A stretch of 20,470 bases of DNA from a virus: the IMG/VR virus record IMGVR_UViG_3300046519_000175, positions 1-20,470 of that record; one strand, given 5' to 3'. Under the pieces are notes generated by a model. It was not told the DNA's origin. It saw nothing but the letters and a program-made list of their open reading frames with translations, and ran no database searches. The translations under genes and the position numbers were made by a program. Each line of letters opens with the position of its first letter. Within the stretch, counting starts at the first letter, position 1. Shown here piece after piece: positions 3,284 through 19,675 of this stretch.

Positions 3284-3979
3284 TTGAGGTGGTCGGATGG
3301 TAGTGTTTGCAAAGAATTTATGGAGGAGATGTTGTTGGACGGAAATTTCTCAGAACGAATCGCTCGCTACTCCATTTGGTTACTTTGGGGTCTTATGGCT
3401 ATAGGGGCGATTCTTTGGCTGCTTGTAGGATCAGTTGCGTACTGGGTTCGTGATGGCTGGCTGCCAGCAGACTCAGCTGGATGGGTCCAAGCAATAGGTG
3501 CGTTCATAGCCATTGCCGTTGCGATAGCGCTACCTTACTTTCAAAGTCGCCAGCAACAGACTGAAAGCAGAGCAGCTGCACTGCGAGAGCGTCTCGATGG
3601 TCGCAATGCTACCTATGCCTTAATGCATCATATGGAAAGCTTATATAAGAGACTGAAGGTCTACATTCGCCCTTCATATTCTTTATTCGGCGGGCCATTG
3701 AGCGGAGCGCGCGAGGATTCTTTGCTTCACGAGTTAAAACAGGCAGCGTCGATGCTTAGAGAAATCCCCGTGACTGCTATTTCTAATGAAATGGTGTTCT
3801 TCGTCATTGGATTGAGGGAGGTTGCCAATTATGGTGAATTTGTAGCTAATGCCATTGAGTCTAGAACGGTTCATCAACCTGATTGGTTAAGCTATCGAAG
3901 CAAGGCTTTCGCAAATCACGAGCTTTTAGTTCGTTGGATGAAGGAGCTAGACGAACTTGAAATGGAATCAAGAAAGTAG
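3284..3979 (+). CDS. Membrane protein of unknown function, two TM helices
   Basis: The product is up to 231 aa. Two hydrophobic helices are visible, at about residues 28-52 (YSIWLLWGLMAIGAILWLLV) and 66-86 (WVQAIGAFIAIAVAIALPYF), followed by a ~145-residue helical, charged region that would face the cytoplasm. I recognise no enzyme motif. A TTG at 3284 has GGAGG five bases upstream, but later starts are possible (ATG 3320, ATG 3329), so the N-terminus is uncertain. Base composition is clearly more A+T-rich than the surrounding phage genes, and the gene points against the operon. Both fit a cargo gene (moron). A role in superinfection exclusion or another lysogen trait is a guess from topology and context. 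Confidence 0.75.
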   Translation: MRWSDGSVCKEFMEEMLLDGNFSERIARYSIWLLWGLMAIGAILWLLVGSVAYWVRDGWLPADSAGWVQAIGAFIAIAVAIALPYFQSRQQQTESRAAALRERLDGRNATYALMHHMESLYKRLKVYIRPSYSLFGGPLSGAREDSLLHELKQAASMLREIPVTAISNEMVFFVIGLREVANYGEFVANAIESRTVHQPDWLSYRSKAFANHELLVRWMKELDELEMESRK

Positions 3980-4005: not shown

Positions 4006-4923
4006 TTAAACGGCGGCCATCAGCGCTTCGATCACGCGCTGGCCGGCGAGCGGGGGAACCGCGTTGCCAGCCATGTGCACCGTCAGGCGATGGCTGTCCG
4101 GACGCTTGGTGTTGGCGGGGAAGGACATGGCCAGCAAGTTCTCGTTGGCCGTGAGCATCCGCATCTTGTCGCCGTTCACGATTGCCCAGCGGTCCCGCGT
4201 AGTGATGGTGCCGATAGGGCGGGTGAGGGCGCGGCCGCTGCGGGTGTTGCCGTAGTAGCTGAACAGGAACTGATCGCCATATGCTGCGCGACCGGCCTTC
4301 ACCCGTTCCAGCGTTGCGGCGGCTCGCCCTGGGCGTTCGATATCAGCCCAGCGGCCGGCTTCCAAATCGATGAACGAATTCGCCGCGGTGTGACGCTCTG
4401 GCCTGAGGTCGAGCATCAGCGGCGCCGCGCTTCGTGTGCAGACGAGGAACATGCGGACCCGGTTCTGAGGTACGCCCAGATCTGCACAATCGACTATGTG
4501 TGGCGCGACCTGATATCCCAGCGAGCGCATGGCCGACAGCCACGCCGGATACAGCGCCCAGTCCACGAACTCAGGAACGTTCTCGACGATGGCCGCTTCG
4601 GGTCTGTGAAACTCCAGCGCCGAGACAACTGCCCAGGCCGTGGACCGGCTTGAGTCGTGCTGCGGATTTCCGGACGACTTGCCGCGCGCCTTGGAGTGGC
4701 CTTGGCAGCAGGGCGAGGCCAGCAAGATGTCGTGACTCGGCACCTTGGTCCAGTCCGCCTGGTGCAGGTCTTGGCAGATGTGCTGAGTGTCCGGGTGGTT
4801 CGCGCTGTGCCACTCTACCGCGACCGGCCAGTGGTTGGCGGCCCAGAGTACTTCGACACCCGCTGCGCGGGCACCGGTGGACCATCCACCGAGGCCGGCA
4901 AACAGATCTATAGCCGTGGCCAT
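4006..4923 (-). CDS. DNA (cytosine-5)-methyltransferase
   Basis: This 305-aa C5 methyltransferase would transfer a methyl group from S-adenosylmethionine to cytosine in DNA. Motifs appear in the standard order: motif I DLFAGLGGW (6-14), motif IV ASPCCQGHS with catalytic Cys73 before Gln74 (the usual PPCQ is here PCCQ), motif VI ENV (114-116), motif VIII QNRVRMF (153-159), a variable target-recognition stretch (about 165-245) and motif X AGNAVPP (285-291). No restriction endonuclease gene is recognisable next to it. As an orphan phage enzyme it probably protects phage DNA from host restriction or alters gene expression. The start ATG at 4923 directly precedes motif I. A divergent membrane-protein gene begins about 50 bases to its right. 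Confidence 0.93.
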   Translation of the reverse strand: MATAIDLFAGLGGWSTGARAAGVEVLWAANHWPVAVEWHSANHPDTQHICQDLHQADWTKVPSHDILLASPCCQGHSKARGKSSGNPQHDSSRSTAWAVVSALEFHRPEAAIVENVPEFVDWALYPAWLSAMRSLGYQVAPHIVDCADLGVPQNRVRMFLVCTRSAAPLMLDLRPERHTAANSFIDLEAGRWADIERPGRAAATLERVKAGRAAYGDQFLFSYYGNTRSGRALTRPIGTITTRDRWAIVNGDKMRMLTANENLLAMSFPANTKRPDSHRLTVHMAGNAVPPLAGQRVIEALMAAV

Positions 4924-4972
4924 TATTTAGTCACCATTGTATAGTTTTAAAAGGTAAGTGGAGAAAACGTCG

Positions 4973-5560
4973 ATGAACGTTCTAAATTGGTTACGTTCAA
5001 AAAAAGATGACATAGCGATGCTGCTGTCTTTCATAGCTTTGTTAGTTTCCGCTGGTAGTTTGTATTTGTCGGCTCACGAAACAGATGCTGTTACCGTCAG
5101 GATTGTTGATTTTGATGGTCCGTCAGGTGATTTGAAAAAATTAAATGTGAAAATGGTACTCGCGAACGGAGGAACCCTGCCATATTTGATAAGTGAAATA
5201 ACGATGGTGGTGAGTGAAGATATGGGGGGTGATGGTTATATGTCTTATACTGATGGATCAACCTCTGCGAAAAGCACACCATTTGTTCTAGATAAAGGAG
5301 AAATGGAGTTAGTCGAAATAAAAACGCCTGTTGTAGAAATGGCTGGTAAGAGTAAAAAGCCGCGTCCGGTCTACGTGGCAGCTATAGTGAAGTCAGTCGA
5401 TGTATACGGTGAAGTTCACAGCGTACAGTTATGGTTTGCAGGGACGTGTATAAAGTCGGGGCTTTTTGCTGGGGGCTTTGTTTCATCGCAAAAGTTTTCG
5501 TTGAAGGTAGATAATAAGTCTATTTTTCAGCGTGAGGATGCGAATCCCTGCAATTATTAA
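4973..5560 (+). CDS. N-terminally membrane-anchored protein, unknown family
   Basis: The protein is 195 aa. One membrane helix at about residues 14-33 (IAMLLSFIALLVSAGSLYLS) follows a short Lys/Arg-rich start. The rest (about 40-195) is beta-rich, with alternating hydrophobic strands (VRIVDFD, KMVLANGG, YVAAIVKSVDVYG), like an Ig- or C2-like soluble domain. I recognise no family. The ATG at 4973 has GGAG nine bases upstream. A GTG at 4958 is an alternative. It is much more A+T-rich than the neighbouring methyltransferase and lies divergent from it with only about 50 bases between, suggesting recent acquisition as cargo. The first residues would be cytoplasmic, but which side the C-terminal domain faces cannot be settled from sequence. 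Confidence 0.75.
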   Translation: MNVLNWLRSKKDDIAMLLSFIALLVSAGSLYLSAHETDAVTVRIVDFDGPSGDLKKLNVKMVLANGGTLPYLISEITMVVSEDMGGDGYMSYTDGSTSAKSTPFVLDKGEMELVEIKTPVVEMAGKSKKPRPVYVAAIVKSVDVYGEVHSVQLWFAGTCIKSGLFAGGFVSSQKFSLKVDNKSIFQREDANPCNY

Positions 5561-5609: not shown

Positions 5610-5792
5610 TCAACCTGTGTCTCTCGCTGCCAGCTCGGCGAGCTGTTCATGCCAGCCAGTTTCAATCAGTGCCGTCGCAGCCTTTATGTGCTCGACGTGG
5701 ATCATCGCTGACGACTTAATTTCGAGCCGGTAGACAATCATGTCGCCGTCGGCAGGGCAGACGGCCGCAAAGGTGTGCCTGTAGGTGTTCAT
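5610..5792 (-). CDS. Small conserved-looking phage protein
   Basis: This 60-aa product begins MNTYRHTFAAVCPADGDMIVYRLEI, a two-strand start, followed by a helix (HVEHIKAATALIETGWHEQLAELAA). GAGG lies seven bases before the ATG. It resembles short early-region proteins of Pseudomonas phages, as far as I can judge without a search, and has no known function. It converges with the membrane-protein gene on its left and is divergent from the I78-like gene on its right. Confidence 0.75.
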   Translation of the reverse strand: MNTYRHTFAAVCPADGDMIVYRLEIKSSAMIHVEHIKAATALIETGWHEQLAELAARDTG

Positions 5793-5874
5793 GCTGATCC
5801 TCGCCAGTGGCGTGATTCGTGAAAGTGGGCTTTGCTCTCTACTCTCGCTGGCAATTCATTTTTTGGAGGTTGCG

Positions 5875-6162
5875 ATGAGCGGAGGAGGTGATGGTGGTGG
5901 TTCACACGTATGGCCATGGAAGGACAACCGGCCGGTGCCATTCCCCCTTTCGGGGATACCGATGACCATCAAGGATTTGATCGGAAGAAAATGCCGCTTA
6001 GTGCGGTATGGAGATTCCACAACTGCGGATATCGAACCTGGCAGAATCACGGTTTTTTTGAATGAGGACGGAAGAATCCAAGACATTTACCTTGATCCTG
6101 AAACTTCTGATGTGCCACTGACTGCAACATATGGAGGAGGCGGGATGGATAGCGGCGGTTGA
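5875..6162 (+). CDS. Peptidase inhibitor I78-like protein
   Basis: This is a 95-aa protein. The segment at about residues 28-66 (IGRKCRLVRYGDSTTADIEP, then GRITVFLNEDGRIQDI) follows the C-terminal pattern of the I78 family of serine-peptidase inhibitors ('RvirpGDavTmDyrpdRlnvelde.GRI..i'). Known I78 proteins are usually exported, but this one has no signal peptide, only a Gly-rich start (SGGGDGGGSH) and a Gly-rich end. The start at 5875 is set by GGAGG six bases upstream. A longer frame from 5785 reads through the divergent promoter and is unlikely. It would act in the cytoplasm, where the target protease, if any, is unknown. Its stop abuts the convergent methyltransferase stop. Confidence 0.7.
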   Translation: MSGGGDGGGSHVWPWKDNRPVPFPLSGIPMTIKDLIGRKCRLVRYGDSTTADIEPGRITVFLNEDGRIQDIYLDPETSDVPLTATYGGGGMDSGG

Positions 6163-7290
6163 TCAAGCGGCCGGATTTGCGTCGTGGAAAACATCCATCT
6201 GCGCCGCGCCGTCCAGCCAGGCTGCTTCGATTCGTGCCCGAGCCATTGCCGCATATTCCGGATTCAGCTCACACAGGATCGACCGCCGGCCTTCCTGCAT
6301 TGATACCAGCGAAGTGGTACCGGCACCGCCGAACGGGTCGAGCACCAGCCCACCGCGCGGGGCACCGGCCAGAATGCAAGGCCGGATCAGATCAGGCGGG
6401 AAGGTGGCGAAGTGGGCGCCCTTGAAACTGTGGGTTGCAACGGTCCAGACACTGCGCTTATTTCGCGTCAGAAGATCCCAGCTGCTCGGCTCCCGATCTG
6501 GTCGGTGCGTGCCTTTACTCTGGCCTGGTATCGCCTGCTCGCGCTTCGAACCTTCGCGCTGAAAGCTGTCACGATTGCTTCTGGCTGACCCGTCCTTGTG
6601 GAATGTTCCGTGTCCGCCTTCGCCGGTAGAGGTGTCCCAGCCGGCGGGGACAGTCACTCGCGGCTTCGGTACAGGGTCAAATCCGTGGCCGAATCCCACG
6701 CCCGATGGCGTTGGCCCGTAAGCTGCTGGCTCCCGGATTGCTCGCATGTCGCAGTGGTACCGGCGCGACTTGCTGAGCAGGAACAGATACTCATGAGCTT
6801 TGGTGCAGCGGTCCCGCGTCGACTCAGGCATTGGGTTTGGTTTGTGCCAGATGATGTCCCGCCGCAGATACCAGCCGTCATCCTGCAGCGCGAAAGCGAG
6901 GCGCCAAGGCATCCCCATCAAATCCTTATGCTTCAGCCCAGCAGGAGCTGAACGCCAACCTGTCGCCTCTCCTTTGCCTTGCCATGCTCCGTCGCCGCGT
7001 TCCGCCATAAAAGAACCGCCGCCGCCACGTCCTCCGGACGCGTAACTGTCACCCATGTTCACCCAGGCAGTGCCATCGTCTCGGAGTACTCGCCGCACTT
7101 CGCGGAAGACGTCCACCAGCCTGGCGATGAACTCTGCCGGTGTTTCCTCCAGGCCGATCTGACCCTCGACGCCGTAGTCGCGTAGGCCGAAGTAGGGCGG
7201 GCTTGTCACGCAGGTGTGAACTGACTTGTCCGGCAGCGTCCGCATCATGTCGATGCAGTCGCCAACCAGAATCTGGTGCTGCTTGCTCAT
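6163..7290 (-). CDS. DNA N-methyltransferase (N6-adenine or N4-cytosine), beta-class order
   Basis: This 375-aa enzyme would methylate an exocyclic amino group in DNA using S-adenosylmethionine. The catalytic motif IV TSPPYFGLRDYG (29-40) comes first and the AdoMet-binding motif DPFGGAGTT (318-326) is near the C-terminus. That is the order of the PF01555 DNA methylase group. A long Gly/Ser/Arg-rich insert at about 180-275 is likely the target-recognition part. TSPPY is more often found in N4-cytosine enzymes, but N6-adenine cannot be excluded. GGAA lies about seven bases before the ATG. No partner endonuclease is recognisable. It is the second orphan methyltransferase in the accessory zone, which fits an anti-restriction role. 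Confidence 0.92.
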   Translation of the reverse strand: MSKQHQILVGDCIDMMRTLPDKSVHTCVTSPPYFGLRDYGVEGQIGLEETPAEFIARLVDVFREVRRVLRDDGTAWVNMGDSYASGGRGGGGSFMAERGDGAWQGKGEATGWRSAPAGLKHKDLMGMPWRLAFALQDDGWYLRRDIIWHKPNPMPESTRDRCTKAHEYLFLLSKSRRYHCDMRAIREPAAYGPTPSGVGFGHGFDPVPKPRVTVPAGWDTSTGEGGHGTFHKDGSARSNRDSFQREGSKREQAIPGQSKGTHRPDREPSSWDLLTRNKRSVWTVATHSFKGAHFATFPPDLIRPCILAGAPRGGLVLDPFGGAGTTSLVSMQEGRRSILCELNPEYAAMARARIEAAWLDGAAQMDVFHDANPAA

Positions 7291-16442: not shown

Positions 16443-16760
16443 ATGGCGCAGCAAGGCAACAATAAGAGTTCAGGGCCGGCGACTATCAGCCCTATGGAGC
16501 GGCTTACCATGCGCGTGTCGTCGATGATCAATCACCCGATAGCCCAGGAAAGGCGGGAGGTCAGGATTCATCGGCTGGACACGGACGGAGAGAGGGAGTG
16601 GAACGAGATCGTGAATGCGATCTCAGAAGCGGACGGGATCAACCTAACGCACAACCACGAAGATGCATCGATCACATTGAGGTGGGAACCTTCAGAGGAC
16701 GACGAGAAGCCCGCGCAAGTAGCGGACCCGTTTGAGTCAGAAGAGCCGGCGCCTTTCTAG
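16443..16760 (+). CDS. DUF1654-like protein under the operator-controlled promoter
   Basis: This 105-aa protein has a core (ERLTMRVSSMINHPIAQERR, EVRIHRLDTDGEREWNEIVN, then a DASITLRWEP strand) that follows the DUF1654 pattern of Pseudomonadaceae, 'RiqrmIn.P.AQ....v.i.r...e...W..i.......g...i.W'. The N-terminus is Gln/Asn-rich and the end acidic. AAGGAGG seven bases before the ATG sets the start. It is the only gene from the left operators to the terminator, so it would be repressed in the lysogen and made early in lytic growth. DUF1654 function is not established. In position it corresponds to the lambda N-side early gene, but it shows no N-like Arg-rich motif. Confidence 0.8.
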   Translation: MAQQGNNKSSGPATISPMERLTMRVSSMINHPIAQERREVRIHRLDTDGEREWNEIVNAISEADGINLTHNHEDASITLRWEPSEDDEKPAQVADPFESEEPAPF

Positions 16761-16765
16761 CGGGC

Positions 16766-16795
16766 ACAAAAAAGCCCGCTCGGAGTGGCGGGCTT
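16766..16795 (-). terminator. Terminator of the cI operon
   Basis: On the minus strand AAGCCCGC pairs with GCGGGCTT (arms 16788-16795 and 16772-16779) with an 8-base loop, followed by a T run (A run at 16768-16773 on the plus strand). It would end leftward transcripts of the membrane-protein gene and cI. It also lies just past the rightward DUF1654-like stop, where it would work less well. Confidence 0.8.
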
Positions 16796-16813
16796 CAGTG
16801 TCTTTCTGGTTCG

Positions 16814-17734
16814 CTAGTGAATCGCAGTGACAGTAAATTGCTTAGGCACCAGAGCCCCCGTCTCTGGATCAGGATCGTAGGAGACTGTGATGTCAGCTTT
16901 GATGATCTGGTCAGCCCTTGCCTTTGAATTATCAAGGCCTGATTCGAAGTGCATAGGCAGTTTCTTTTTGTTAGCTATCGTTGGGATCCGTGCGATCCAA
17001 CCGGATTTATCGCTATCTCGGTTGAGGCTTCTAATGTCGACGTCCACATTCTGGTACTTCAGCTCCTGTGAAACAGGCGACAGGACGGCCTTATCTGGCG
17101 CATCCCTCGACGCGGCGTGACTGATAACTAGCGGGCTTGATTTATCATCGCCAGCGTAAATCGCGCCACCGTTTTGGCCTGCTGCCGGCTTCACAAAGTC
17201 TAAGGCAGCCGCTGCTACGCGTTTCCTGTCTGTAGAGAGAGCGGCCTCAATCGCTTTGTTGAGCTGCTGCGGCGAAGAATTGAACATATCTTGTCCGGCC
17301 ACCATGACCACGCTGTTCGTCGCCTGAATACTGGGAGCGTTGTTTCCAGCAGCCTTGTCCACCAGGCTAACCGCGCTCGCTGCTACCACAATAAAAGCTG
17401 CCGCCGCAACGCCAGCTATGGCTGTGTACCTAAGACCTGAACCAAACTTCGTTGTCATCAGCCACTTCTCTAGCTTGTCTTTCTCCACCTGGTTTAGACA
17501 TTTAAGCACTAATTCCAGGTATTCCTTGAGACTACCTGACTCGACTTTCTCGACTCGCAGCTCGCACGACTGGACCTGTGCGCCGCTAAGCGATGAAAAG
17601 AAAGCCGGCATCGCAGGGCTCATTCGGTCTAAAGCAGACAGAGCCTTGATAACGTCAGGGATGGGGAGTGGGGTTTTGCTTTCGTAATAGAAGGCTAGGG
17701 GAAGCCTGACCTCAAAATCCGTTTGTTGATTCAC
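16814..17734 (-). CDS. Membrane-anchored protein of unknown function, downstream of cI
   Basis: The protein is 306 aa. An N-terminal domain (about 1-95) is alpha/beta with a VRLPLAFYYESKTPLPIPDV start, a helix KALSALDRMSPAMPAFF and VEKVESGSLKEYLELVLKCL. One membrane helix follows (about 102-124, YTAIAGVAAAAFIVVAASAV). The C-terminal ~180 residues are soluble, with a VVMVAGQDMF start, helices (QQLNKAIEAALS) and a final beta-rich part. I recognise no family. The GTG at 17734 has AGGA seven bases upstream. It is co-directional with cI, 48 bases after it, and ends at a strong terminator, so it would be expressed in the lysogen like lambda rexAB. That makes superinfection exclusion or another lysogen trait a reasonable guess. 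Confidence 0.8.
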   Translation of the reverse strand: MNQQTDFEVRLPLAFYYESKTPLPIPDVIKALSALDRMSPAMPAFFSSLSGAQVQSCELRVEKVESGSLKEYLELVLKCLNQVEKDKLEKWLMTTKFGSGLRYTAIAGVAAAAFIVVAASAVSLVDKAAGNNAPSIQATNSVVMVAGQDMFNSSPQQLNKAIEAALSTDRKRVAAAALDFVKPAAGQNGGAIYAGDDKSSPLVISHAASRDAPDKAVLSPVSQELKYQNVDVDIRSLNRDSDKSGWIARIPTIANKKKLPMHFESGLDNSKARADQIIKADITVSYDPDPETGALVPKQFTVTAIH

Positions 17735-17782
17735 TTCTAAATCCTAAAGCAAAGACCATAAAAATGGATGAATTTTGGCTGG

Positions 17783-18643
17783 TTAGACTAGATTTCCGTT
17801 CCACACGAACAGCACGCGAGCTTGAATGTAGGTCTCATCGATGAAAATGTCTTCGGCCTTATGCTTCCGGTTGTCCGAGATCATCTTGAATCTGTCCTTG
17901 CCCTTCATCTGCAAGCGCTTGATGTACTGAAAGCCGCCGTATGAGAAGTAGTAAATGCCGTCGCCTACGAATTCCTTGATGCTGATGTCAACCAGGCAGG
18001 GGTCTCCGTGCTTGATCGTCGGCGTCATTGATTGACCCCAGCCCGTTACCATTTTTAGGTGGTAGTGCTCTCTGAACTCAACGCCCATCGCGCGTAGTTG
18101 AGAGGGGCTGATGCGAACGTCCTGTAGCAACTCTGGGTAGTCGTGGACCACCTCGCCACCGCCCAGCGCGCCGCGCACGTCATAGTGCGCAATCCATACC
18201 TCATCGCCAACCTTGCCCGAGCCGGGCTTGTAAGCGTCATTCACTAGCACCTCGATGGTGCCTTCTTGCTCTGTACCTTCAGCCACTGCCAGCAGCTTTT
18301 GTAGGCGGTCTTCGCCCAACTTCTTGCCTGCCAGCATTTCCCGAATCTTGTCAGCGGCAGTCGACGAATCACCAGCTACGACCTGATCAACGAGCAGCCC
18401 GGGCCCGTCTCCTGACCCATGTTGAAGCCATTCGATTTTGACGCCGAGATTTTCGGCAATCGCCTGCATTTTTGCCGGGCCGGGTATCGACTCCCCATTG
18501 AGCCATTTGCTGGCCGCCTTGGGTGTGACCTTTGTCATTTCAGCGAGGCGAGCGCCCGCACCCCATTGATCGATGCCTTTCTCGGCAAGCGACTTTTTTA
18601 AGCGGTAGGCAAACGCGGCGCGGATTTCTTCTATTTGAACCAT
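17783..18643 (-). CDS. cI: CI-type repressor with S24 peptidase-like domain
   Basis: This 286-aa phage repressor would maintain lysogeny. Residues about 8-75 form a helix-turn-helix domain (ARLAEMTKVTPKAASKWLNG, ESIPGPAKMQAIAENLGV). A linker follows, then the S24/LexA-like domain (about 140-286) with GWGQSMTPTIKHGDPC, in which Ser205 is the likely nucleophile, and YIKRLQ, with Lys242 the general base. No Ala-Gly pair is seen at the usual cleavage place (RGALGGGE, 157-164). AG pairs occur earlier (residues 90 and 105). The start at 18643 is chosen because a well-placed GATATT would put the transcript start on this ATG, as in leaderless lambda cI. A longer frame to 18688 is possible. Confidence 0.9.
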   Translation of the reverse strand: MVQIEEIRAAFAYRLKKSLAEKGIDQWGAGARLAEMTKVTPKAASKWLNGESIPGPAKMQAIAENLGVKIEWLQHGSGDGPGLLVDQVVAGDSSTAADKIREMLAGKKLGEDRLQKLLAVAEGTEQEGTIEVLVNDAYKPGSGKVGDEVWIAHYDVRGALGGGEVVHDYPELLQDVRISPSQLRAMGVEFREHYHLKMVTGWGQSMTPTIKHGDPCLVDISIKEFVGDGIYYFSYGGFQYIKRLQMKGKDRFKMISDNRKHKAEDIFIDETYIQARVLFVWNGNLV

Positions 18644-18707
18644 AGGTTCAATATCGCATGCCCTTGCATGTACTTTCAGTTCCGACATAACATGTACTGC
18701 AAGTTCA
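18636..18707. promoter_or_regulatory. Right operator cluster (OR-like), three sites
   Basis: The sites are 18636-18650 (TGAACCATAGGTTCA, perfect), 18669-18683 (TGTACTTTCAGTTCC) and 18693-18707 (TGTACTGCAAGTTCA), with centre spacings of 33 and 24 bp. The first covers the cI start codon, the second the cI -35, and the third the spacer and -10 of the rightward promoter. Occupancy would switch between cI and cro, as in lambda. Confidence 0.8.
18650..18679 (-). promoter_or_regulatory. PRM-like promoter of cI
   Basis: On the minus strand CTGAAA (18674-18679), an 18-base spacer and GATATT (18650-18655) place a transcript start at or next to the ATG at 18643. This fits a leaderless cI mRNA. The -35 overlaps the middle operator. 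Confidence 0.55.
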
Positions 18708-18726: not shown

Positions 18727-18966
18727 ATGAGCCCGCTTAAGAAATCGATTGATGACGCCGGCGGCGTTCCGGTGGTTGCCATGGCATGCGGCAAAACGCC
18801 GCGAGCCGTTTACAAGTGGCTGACCGCCGAGTGCCTGCCGCGCACTGAATACACCGGCGAAACCCGGTATGCCGAGCGGATCGCCGCACTGGCATCAGCC
18901 AATGGGAAGCCGTTCGAGCCCTCTTGGCTTCTCTCGGAAGCCCACCCCAAGAAATCTGCCGCCTAA
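18727..18966 (+). CDS. cro: Cro-like repressor (YdaS/Cro HTH family)
   Basis: The protein is 79 aa. The MSPLKKSIDDAGGVPVVAMA start with a KTPRAVYKWLTAECLPRTEY segment is the Cro/YdaS-type helix-turn-helix pattern (helix, 'avA.a.Gkt..aVykWl....lPrte'). It is the first rightward gene after the OR cluster and would shut off cI during lytic growth. GGAGG six bases upstream sets the ATG at 18727. Its stop overlaps the stop of the opposite-strand gene by 3 bases. Confidence 0.88.
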   Translation: MSPLKKSIDDAGGVPVVAMACGKTPRAVYKWLTAECLPRTEYTGETRYAERIAALASANGKPFEPSWLLSEAHPKKSAA

Positions 18967-19252: not shown

Positions 19253-19675
19253 ATGGAAGACTTTTTGGATGCGTGCCAGTCGGCGGTCAAGGGCAACGAG
19301 CCAAAAGCACTGGCCGCGAAGATGGGTGTTCCGCATGTAAGCCTGCTCCAGCGCGCGAACCCCGACAACGATGCACACCACCTGACCATCGAGCACTTGT
19401 ACGGCGTGCTGCTGCACACCGGCGACATGCGCCCCCTGATTGCCTTGGCATCCGAGTTTGGTTTCGACCTAGTTGCCCGCGACAAGCCTGCACCTACCGA
19501 TCTGAATTCGGCGCTGATGCGCCTGCACGTAGATCTCGCAGACGTGACTCGACTGGCCTACGACGCACAGTCGGACGGGCATGTGTGCTCGCGTGAGAAG
19601 TCGGAACTGATCAAGGAAGCCGACGAGGTGATCGTCAGCTTGGAAGTGTTCAAGCAGTCCGTAAAGGTCGCCTGA
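19253..19675 (+). CDS. cII: CII-type phage regulator (CP76 family)
   Basis: The protein is 140 aa. The start MEDFLDACQSAVKGNEPKAL, then AAKMGVPHVSLLQRANPDND and HHLTIEHLYGVLLHTGD follow the CP76-type CII pattern: helices for DNA binding, then an 'LTieel..il..tgd.r.L.alA...g' segment. The last ~55 residues form a helix-rich tail (ELIKEADEVIVSLEVFKQSV). It sits between cro and the replication gene, the cII place in lambdoid maps, so it likely promotes cI establishment. GAGG lies about nine bases before the ATG. A hairpin follows its stop. Confidence 0.85.
   Translation: MEDFLDACQSAVKGNEPKALAAKMGVPHVSLLQRANPDNDAHHLTIEHLYGVLLHTGDMRPLIALASEFGFDLVARDKPAPTDLNSALMRLHVDLADVTRLAYDAQSDGHVCSREKSELIKEADEVIVSLEVFKQSVKVA

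What the first reader, a model, noticed from the sequence alone, without database searches (positions are those of the whole stretch)
16814..17734. Unknown membrane-anchored protein downstream of cI
A 306-aa single-pass protein follows cI by 48 bases with a strong terminator after it, the place of lambda rexAB. It has a compact N-terminal domain, one membrane helix and a large soluble C-terminal part, and no family I recognise. Genes in this slot are often superinfection-exclusion or abortive-infection systems. This is the best candidate for an undescribed system here.
Basis: inference. Interest (0 to 1): 0.62.

Follow-up and report, generated by a model that had tools for sequence, protein, structure and literature searches.

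The report
Prophage membrane protein beside repressor gene
A dormant virus carries, right behind the gene that keeps it dormant, an uncharacterised membrane protein that relatives swap in and out of the same slot as known virus-blocking genes, so it is probably a shield against competing viruses, though this has not been tested.

Summary
ORF 16814-17734 (-) encodes 306 aa, starts 48 bases after cI, and is followed by a strong intrinsic terminator. It has one clear membrane helix (106-124). It is not unique: it is a full-length member of PHROG 4506 (function unknown, E 2e-42), with no Pfam or PADLOC match, and its relatives are distantly related to NCBIfam LAPAL_fam. I collected 21 subfamilies from phages or prophages of Pseudomonas, Escherichia, Pasteurella, Kingella and Leptolyngbya. 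At least 11 lie just downstream of a repressor gene; others sit between Q and holin or near integrase.

Two reciprocal swaps show that it is cargo. Copies 93-96% identical follow repressors only 18-34% identical. In E. coli, one cI type (609 genomes) is followed by this gene in 148 and by other genes in the rest, including BstA and PD-Lambda-2, which are known anti-phage systems.

The model (pLDDT 84) gives a ferredoxin/RRM-like N-domain, a membrane helix, helices and an OB-like C-domain. Positive-inside bias and no cysteine after the helix (0/3845 against 18/2175 residues) suggest N-in/C-out.

Best reading: a lysogen-expressed exclusion protein (about 0.6), perhaps blocking phage DNA entry at the inner membrane (about 0.3). 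No phenotype is known.

The parts
16814..17734 (-). 306-aa single-pass membrane protein (phrog_4506 member), the finding itself
17742..17745 (-). Shine-Dalgarno-like AGGA, 7 bases before the GTG start
   Evidence: read directly from the sequence
17453..17713 (-). N-terminal domain, residues 8-94, ferredoxin/RRM-like (beta-beta-alpha-beta-beta-alpha), with the conserved GSLxE turn (residues 67-71)
17363..17419 (-). transmembrane helix, residues 106-124, rich in Gly and Ala
17183..17188 (-). invariant Pro183-Ala184, which by inference corresponds to the PA of the LAPAL motif of NF053583
16817..17077 (-). C-terminal OB-like domain, residues 220-306, with invariant R235, D240, W246
16768..16796 (-). 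intrinsic terminator that ends the cI-gene transcript
   Evidence: sequence
17783..18688 (-). cI-type repressor (HTH_3 plus Peptidase_S24), upstream gene of the same presumed operon
18727..18966 (+). Cro-like gene, divergent from cI
   Evidence: phrog_35
19253..19675 (+). CII-like activator gene (Phage_CP76)
16443..16760 (+). convergent DUF1654 gene; no partner gene follows the 306-aa ORF
   Evidence: ATG at 16443 chosen by its AAGGAGG site

Best explanation
It is a lysogenic-conversion ('moron') gene carried as the second gene of the repressor operon, so the prophage makes the protein while it is dormant. The protein is anchored in the inner membrane by one helix, with a small ferredoxin/RRM-like domain in the cytoplasm and a helical segment plus an OB-like domain in the periplasm. 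Its most likely job is to protect the lysogen, and so the prophage, from other phages. My preferred mechanism is exclusion at the membrane: the protein assembles through its Gly/Ala-rich helix, and its periplasmic OB domain interferes with DNA entry of an incoming phage, alone or with a host inner-membrane partner. Shown by computation: position, conservation, cargo behaviour, fold class of the model. Inferred: lysogenic expression (about 0.9), topology (about 0.75), anti-phage role (about 0.6), the entry-block mechanism (about 0.3).
For: Same-strand gene 48 bases behind cI with no promoter or terminator flagged between them, and a strong terminator after it. At least 11 of 21 subfamilies (90% identity clusters) follow a repressor gene on the same strand. 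Homologues 93-96% identical follow repressors only 18-34% identical. In E. coli one cI type occurs in 609 genomes, 148 with this gene; in the others the similarity stops 5-28 bases after the cI stop codon, and sampled loci carry BstA (E 4e-106), PD-Lambda-2 A and B, or PADLOC candidates PDC-M63 and PDC-M24-like. BstA is an experimentally shown defence gene that lies downstream of cI, and its discoverers call the cI-N interval a mosaic hotspot (PMC8585504). RexAB of P. putida also lies downstream of a cI-like repressor (PMC12894663). Topology: more K/R before the helix in 18 of 21 members; cysteines 18 of 2175 residues before the helix against 0 of 3845 after it. Standalone: no partner gene kept across loci.
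Against: No phage phenotype is known for any member. Strong purifying selection (dN/dS 0.016-0.10) fits a conserved, perhaps host, partner better than an arms race with phage proteins. In several Pseudomonas phages the gene lies between Q and holin on the late strand, where lysogenic expression is not evident. PADLOC has no model for it. Neither fold match singles out a function. Cargo slots also carry genes unrelated to defence.
Confidence: 0.45

Rival explanations
1. One-protein abortive-infection device: the cytoplasmic N-domain senses a phage product and the oligomerised membrane helix damages the membrane, a RexAB-like logic compressed in one chain.
For: Occupies the rexAB slot; slot neighbours in E. 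coli include BstA and PD-Lambda-2; the most conserved residues of the N-domain (L32, S68, E71) lie on the predicted cytoplasmic side; Gly/Ala-rich helix.
Against: Only one membrane helix, against four in the RexB proteins (PMC12894663); the large conserved C-terminal part (R235, D240, W246 invariant) would be unexplained.
Confidence: 0.25
2. Lysogenic conversion unrelated to phages: the protein alters host envelope or stress physiology to the lysogen's benefit.
For: Strong purifying selection; also found at the Q-holin and integrase-side cargo sites; in P. aeruginosa relatives an uncharacterised lipoprotein gene lies between repressor and gene.
Against: The exchange partners identified in the slot by PADLOC are mostly known or candidate anti-phage systems.
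Confidence: 0.2
3. Regulator of the phage's own lysogeny or induction, for example modulating the repressor.
For: Linked to repressor genes in at least 11 of 21 subfamilies. A precedent for a second protein from the repressor mRNA is Hex of phage 434, reported to prevent repressor autocleavage (PMC3564112, title and abstract only).
Against: Near-identical copies work with repressors only 18-34% identical, and other copies are not next to a repressor.
Confidence: 0.07
4. Late protein: holin-like, lysis or virion component, as the weak holin matches and the NCBIfam label 'putative phage structural protein' of its remote relative suggest.
For: Q-holin position in some Pseudomonas phages; weak matches to holin models over the membrane stretch, E 0.022 and 0.1.
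Against: Presumed co-transcription with cI means expression in the dormant state, where a lysis or virion protein makes no sense; in L029, L072 and L082 it lies on the strand opposite to the late genes; the weak matches cover only the hydrophobic stretch and its flank.
Confidence: 0.04

Closest known systems
phrog_4506 (PHROGs v4, unknown function)
   Same: Full-length match, residues 6-304 to profile 4-297 of 300, E 2e-42
   Different: Nothing: the window protein is a member; the family has no assigned function
NCBIfam NF053583 LAPAL_fam ('LAPAL motif-containing putative phage structural protein')
   Same: Relatives match it over about 200 residues: L046 E 6.5e-7, L035 E 6e-4, L007 E 0.0034; the invariant PA probably equals the PA of LAPAL
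   Different: All far below the 60-bit cut-off (29 bits at best); the window protein itself gives no match; the lysogenic setting argues against a structural role
Lambda RexAB and RexAB of P. putida
   Same: Position behind a cI-type repressor, a membrane component (PMC12894663)
   Different: One gene instead of two; one membrane helix instead of four; no sequence match to RexA among solved structures
BstA
   Same: Position behind cI, about 300 aa, a direct alternative in the same E. coli slot
   Different: No sequence match of the window protein to the PADLOC BstA model; BstA localises to phage DNA replication sites (PMC8585504 abstract), whereas this protein has a membrane helix
TRADD-N domains (Kaur et al. 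2021, PMC8195603)
   Same: RRM-like fold class, Gly-Ser in the turn between two strands as in the 'uS motif' of TRADD-N
   Different: No profile match in Pfam or among solved structures; strand order appears permuted (extra strand at the N-terminus, no fourth strand after the second helix); bacterial TRADD-N usually sits between other domains

Membership tests
phrog_4506 | full-length profile match | tested here: met
   E 2e-42, 294 of 300 profile positions
LAPAL_fam (NF053583) | score above the 60-bit curated cut-off | tested here: not met
   window protein no match at E<=1; best relative 29 bits
RexAB | gene(s) directly behind a cI-type repressor | tested here: met
   48-base gap
RexAB | two adjacent genes: cytosolic RexA plus 4-TM RexB | tested here: not met
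   single ORF followed by a terminator and a convergent gene; one TM
RexAB | RexA fold (PDB 8TWQ) | tested here: inconclusive
   no sequence match; not among the rows shown by fold search, which does not exclude it
BstA | match to the BstA profile | tested here: not met
   no PADLOC match for the window protein; the alternative gene in L050 matches at E 4e-106
TRADD-N superfamily | RRM-like fold | tested here: inconclusive
   model rows with RRM and PII-like chains at Z 5-6.4 only; N-domain predicted alone failed, pLDDT 57
TRADD-N superfamily | tiny residue plus Ser in the beta2-beta3 turn | tested here: inconclusive
   S68 invariant in 17 of 17 and G67 nearly so, but a GS turn alone is weak evidence
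TRADD-N superfamily | significant profile similarity | tested here: not met
   no TRADD-N family among Pfam matches at E<=1 for 17 N-domains; no TRADD chain at E<=10
Holin | significant match to a holin family | tested here: not met
   only E 0.022 and 0.1 over the membrane stretch
Prophage superinfection-exclusion or defence gene (functional class) | reduces plating of other phages when expressed | not testable with these tools
   needs a plating experiment

The most novel reading that the evidence does not exclude
PHROG 4506 and its remote LAPAL relatives are an undescribed single-protein, membrane-spanning phage-exclusion family, spread through proteobacterial and cyanobacterial phages, whose cytoplasmic RRM-like and periplasmic OB-like domains work by a mechanism unlike RexAB or BstA.
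Probability: 0.4. Interest if true: 0.62.

Novelty: new member of a known kind. Interest (0 to 1): 0.45.

Why it matters
If the protein excludes phages, a whole family now filed as 'unknown function' (148 of 5426 complete E. coli genomes carry one allele of it) becomes a defence family, and the repressor-linked slot gains another occupant beside RexAB, BstA and PD-Lambda-2. The E. coli slot, where the same cI type is paired with different cargo, allows clean comparisons of cargo genes in matched prophages. Even without a phenotype, the result argues against the label 'putative phage structural protein' that its remote relatives carry.

Tried and rejected
Pfam, PADLOC and NCBIfam gave nothing for the window protein. 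Whole-set Pfam scan of 20 homologues gave only scattered chance-level matches. Solved-structure sequence search gave only an Orc4 stretch at E 0.26, shared mainly through 'SGSL.E', which I treat as chance. Foldseek against the PDB had no match under E 0.001; in BFVD the best was an uncharacterised phage protein, E 4.7e-8. The N-domain predicted alone without an alignment failed (pLDDT 57, helical), so the fold of that part rests on the full-length model. Scans of genome contigs with the window protein and a 3-sequence profile found no relatives, so bacterial-genome context comes only from E. coli, plasmid and IMG/VR records. The genome search could not be centred on a virus record. No paper in the library names PHROG 4506. 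Considered and rejected: late lysis role, and regulator of its own repressor (see rivals). The cysteine bias could reflect composition rather than the periplasm; I treat it as supporting, not decisive.

Full report
The observation. The gene before it on the same strand, 17783-18688, is a repressor with HTH_3 and Peptidase_S24 domains; 48 bases lie between them and nothing promoter- or terminator-like was flagged there. Divergent from cI are a Cro-like and a CII-like gene. Eighteen bases after the stop codon comes a hairpin with a run of six T on the minus strand (-17.3 kcal/mol, z -3.3), and behind it a convergent DUF1654 gene. So cI and this ORF most simply form one transcript that ends here.

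What the protein is. No Pfam, PADLOC or NCBIfam model matches it. PHROGs does: phrog_4506, full length, E 2e-42, function unknown. tblastn finds homologues in Pseudomonas, Escherichia (the Lambda_ev/1H12 group, Jouyvirus) and Leptolyngbya phages and in Pasteurella, Kingella, E. coli and P. aeruginosa records of the plasmid collection; IMG/VR adds more. Twenty aligned members share L32, G67, S68, E71, G147, K171, P183, A184, G195, P213, R235, D240 and W246. Three divergent relatives match NCBIfam LAPAL_fam over about 200 residues (L046 E 6.5e-7, L035 E 6e-4, L007 E 0.0034), all below its cut-off, so LAPAL_fam is a remote sister, not the family. Among near homologues dN/dS is 0.016-0.10: a real protein under strong constraint.

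Anatomy. AlphaFold2 on the 20-sequence alignment gave pLDDT 84 and pTM 0.69: strands and helices of a ferredoxin/RRM-like domain (8-94), a helix at 103-128 that contains the hydrophobic segment 106-124, three more helices to 184, and a five-stranded beta domain (220-306). The C-domain resembles many OB-fold chains (IF1, SSB, CusF, RNase II) at Z 5-6.4, the N-domain RRM and PII-like chains at Z 5-6.4. Such Z values mean a common arrangement, not kinship. In 21 non-redundant members K/R are more frequent just before the helix than after it in 18, and cysteines number 18 in 2175 residues before the helix and none in 3845 after it. Both point to N-terminus in, C-terminus in the periplasm; neither is proof.

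Cargo behaviour. Among 21 subfamilies at 90% identity, at least 11 lie on the same strand within 1.5 kb behind a repressor (a lower bound, since only repressors similar to my queries were seen). The rest include the gap between Q and holin, on either strand (L005, L035, L039, L040 and, by their holin or neighbouring genes, L036, L037, L042 on the late strand; L029, L072, L082 on the opposite strand), and a place beside integrase (L081). Copies of the gene 93-96% identical (L011, L021, L022, L024) are preceded by repressors only 18-34% identical. Conversely, one cI type found in 609 complete E. coli genomes has this gene behind it in 148; in the others the match stops 5-28 bases after the cI stop codon. 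Five such loci were opened: BstA (PADLOC E 4e-106), a PD-Lambda-2 A/B pair with a PD-T4-9_C-like third gene, a PDC-M63 pair, a PDC-M24-like pair, and one pair without a confident match. BstA with this cI type is rare (10 genomes). So the gene behaves as an exchangeable cassette in a slot that also takes known or candidate anti-phage genes.

What is known about the slot. Owen et al. show that BstA, downstream of cI, mediates abortive infection and note that the cI-N interval is a mosaic hotspot that in lambda holds rexAB (PMC8585504). A RexAB-type system of P. putida also lies downstream of a cI-like repressor (PMC12894663). It remains an argument from position.

How it may work. The protein is standalone in every locus examined, so a Rex-like two-gene device is unlikely. 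A single anchored chain with conserved residues on both sides of the membrane could (a) hinder DNA entry of an incoming phage from the periplasmic side, (b) sense a phage product in the cytoplasm and damage the membrane as an oligomer, or (c) act on the host envelope for reasons unrelated to phages. I rank them about 0.3, 0.25 and 0.2, with the remainder for regulation, late function or the unforeseen. The strong purifying selection leans towards a conserved host partner. The conserved Gly-Ser turn recalls the uS motif of TRADD-N domains (PMC8195603), but no profile search supports membership.

Verdict. Observation confirmed; interpretation partly supported. A previously filed but uncharacterised phage family, very probably lysogenic cargo, probably anti-phage, mechanism open.

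Noticed in passing
3284-3979 (+) and 4958-5560 (+): Two single genes on the plus strand inside the long minus-strand early region, each with a hydrophobic N-terminal stretch and no Pfam or PADLOC match: further candidate cargo genes.
   Followed up: partly
4006-4923 (-) and 6163-7290 (-): The phage carries a C5-cytosine and an N6/N4 DNA methyltransferase with no restriction enzyme noticed nearby; possibly self-protection from host restriction.
   Followed up: no
5785-6162 (+): Weak match to Inhibitor_I78 (E 1.7e-4, just under the cut-off) in a small plus-strand ORF.
   Followed up: no
L031:3861-4349 and 4420-4917; L048:4348-4908: In some relatives a predicted lipoprotein gene lies between the repressor and the family gene (phrog_14789, phrog_36373, unknown function): the slot can hold several cargo genes.
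   Followed up: partly
L034:3269-4363: A relative of the gene sits behind an endonuclease-like gene (phrog_4225) and small ORFs, away from any repressor seen.
   Followed up: no
E. coli NZ_CP090319.1, 2225204-2227717: In strain EECO1006 the family gene behind cI is split by an IS1 element: a natural disruption.
   Followed up: no
L049:4306-5612 and L052:4332-5335: Two further gene pairs occupy the same E. coli slot (DUF6978-like plus DUF1828, and a CCDC90-like coiled-coil pair): untested defence candidates.
   Followed up: partly
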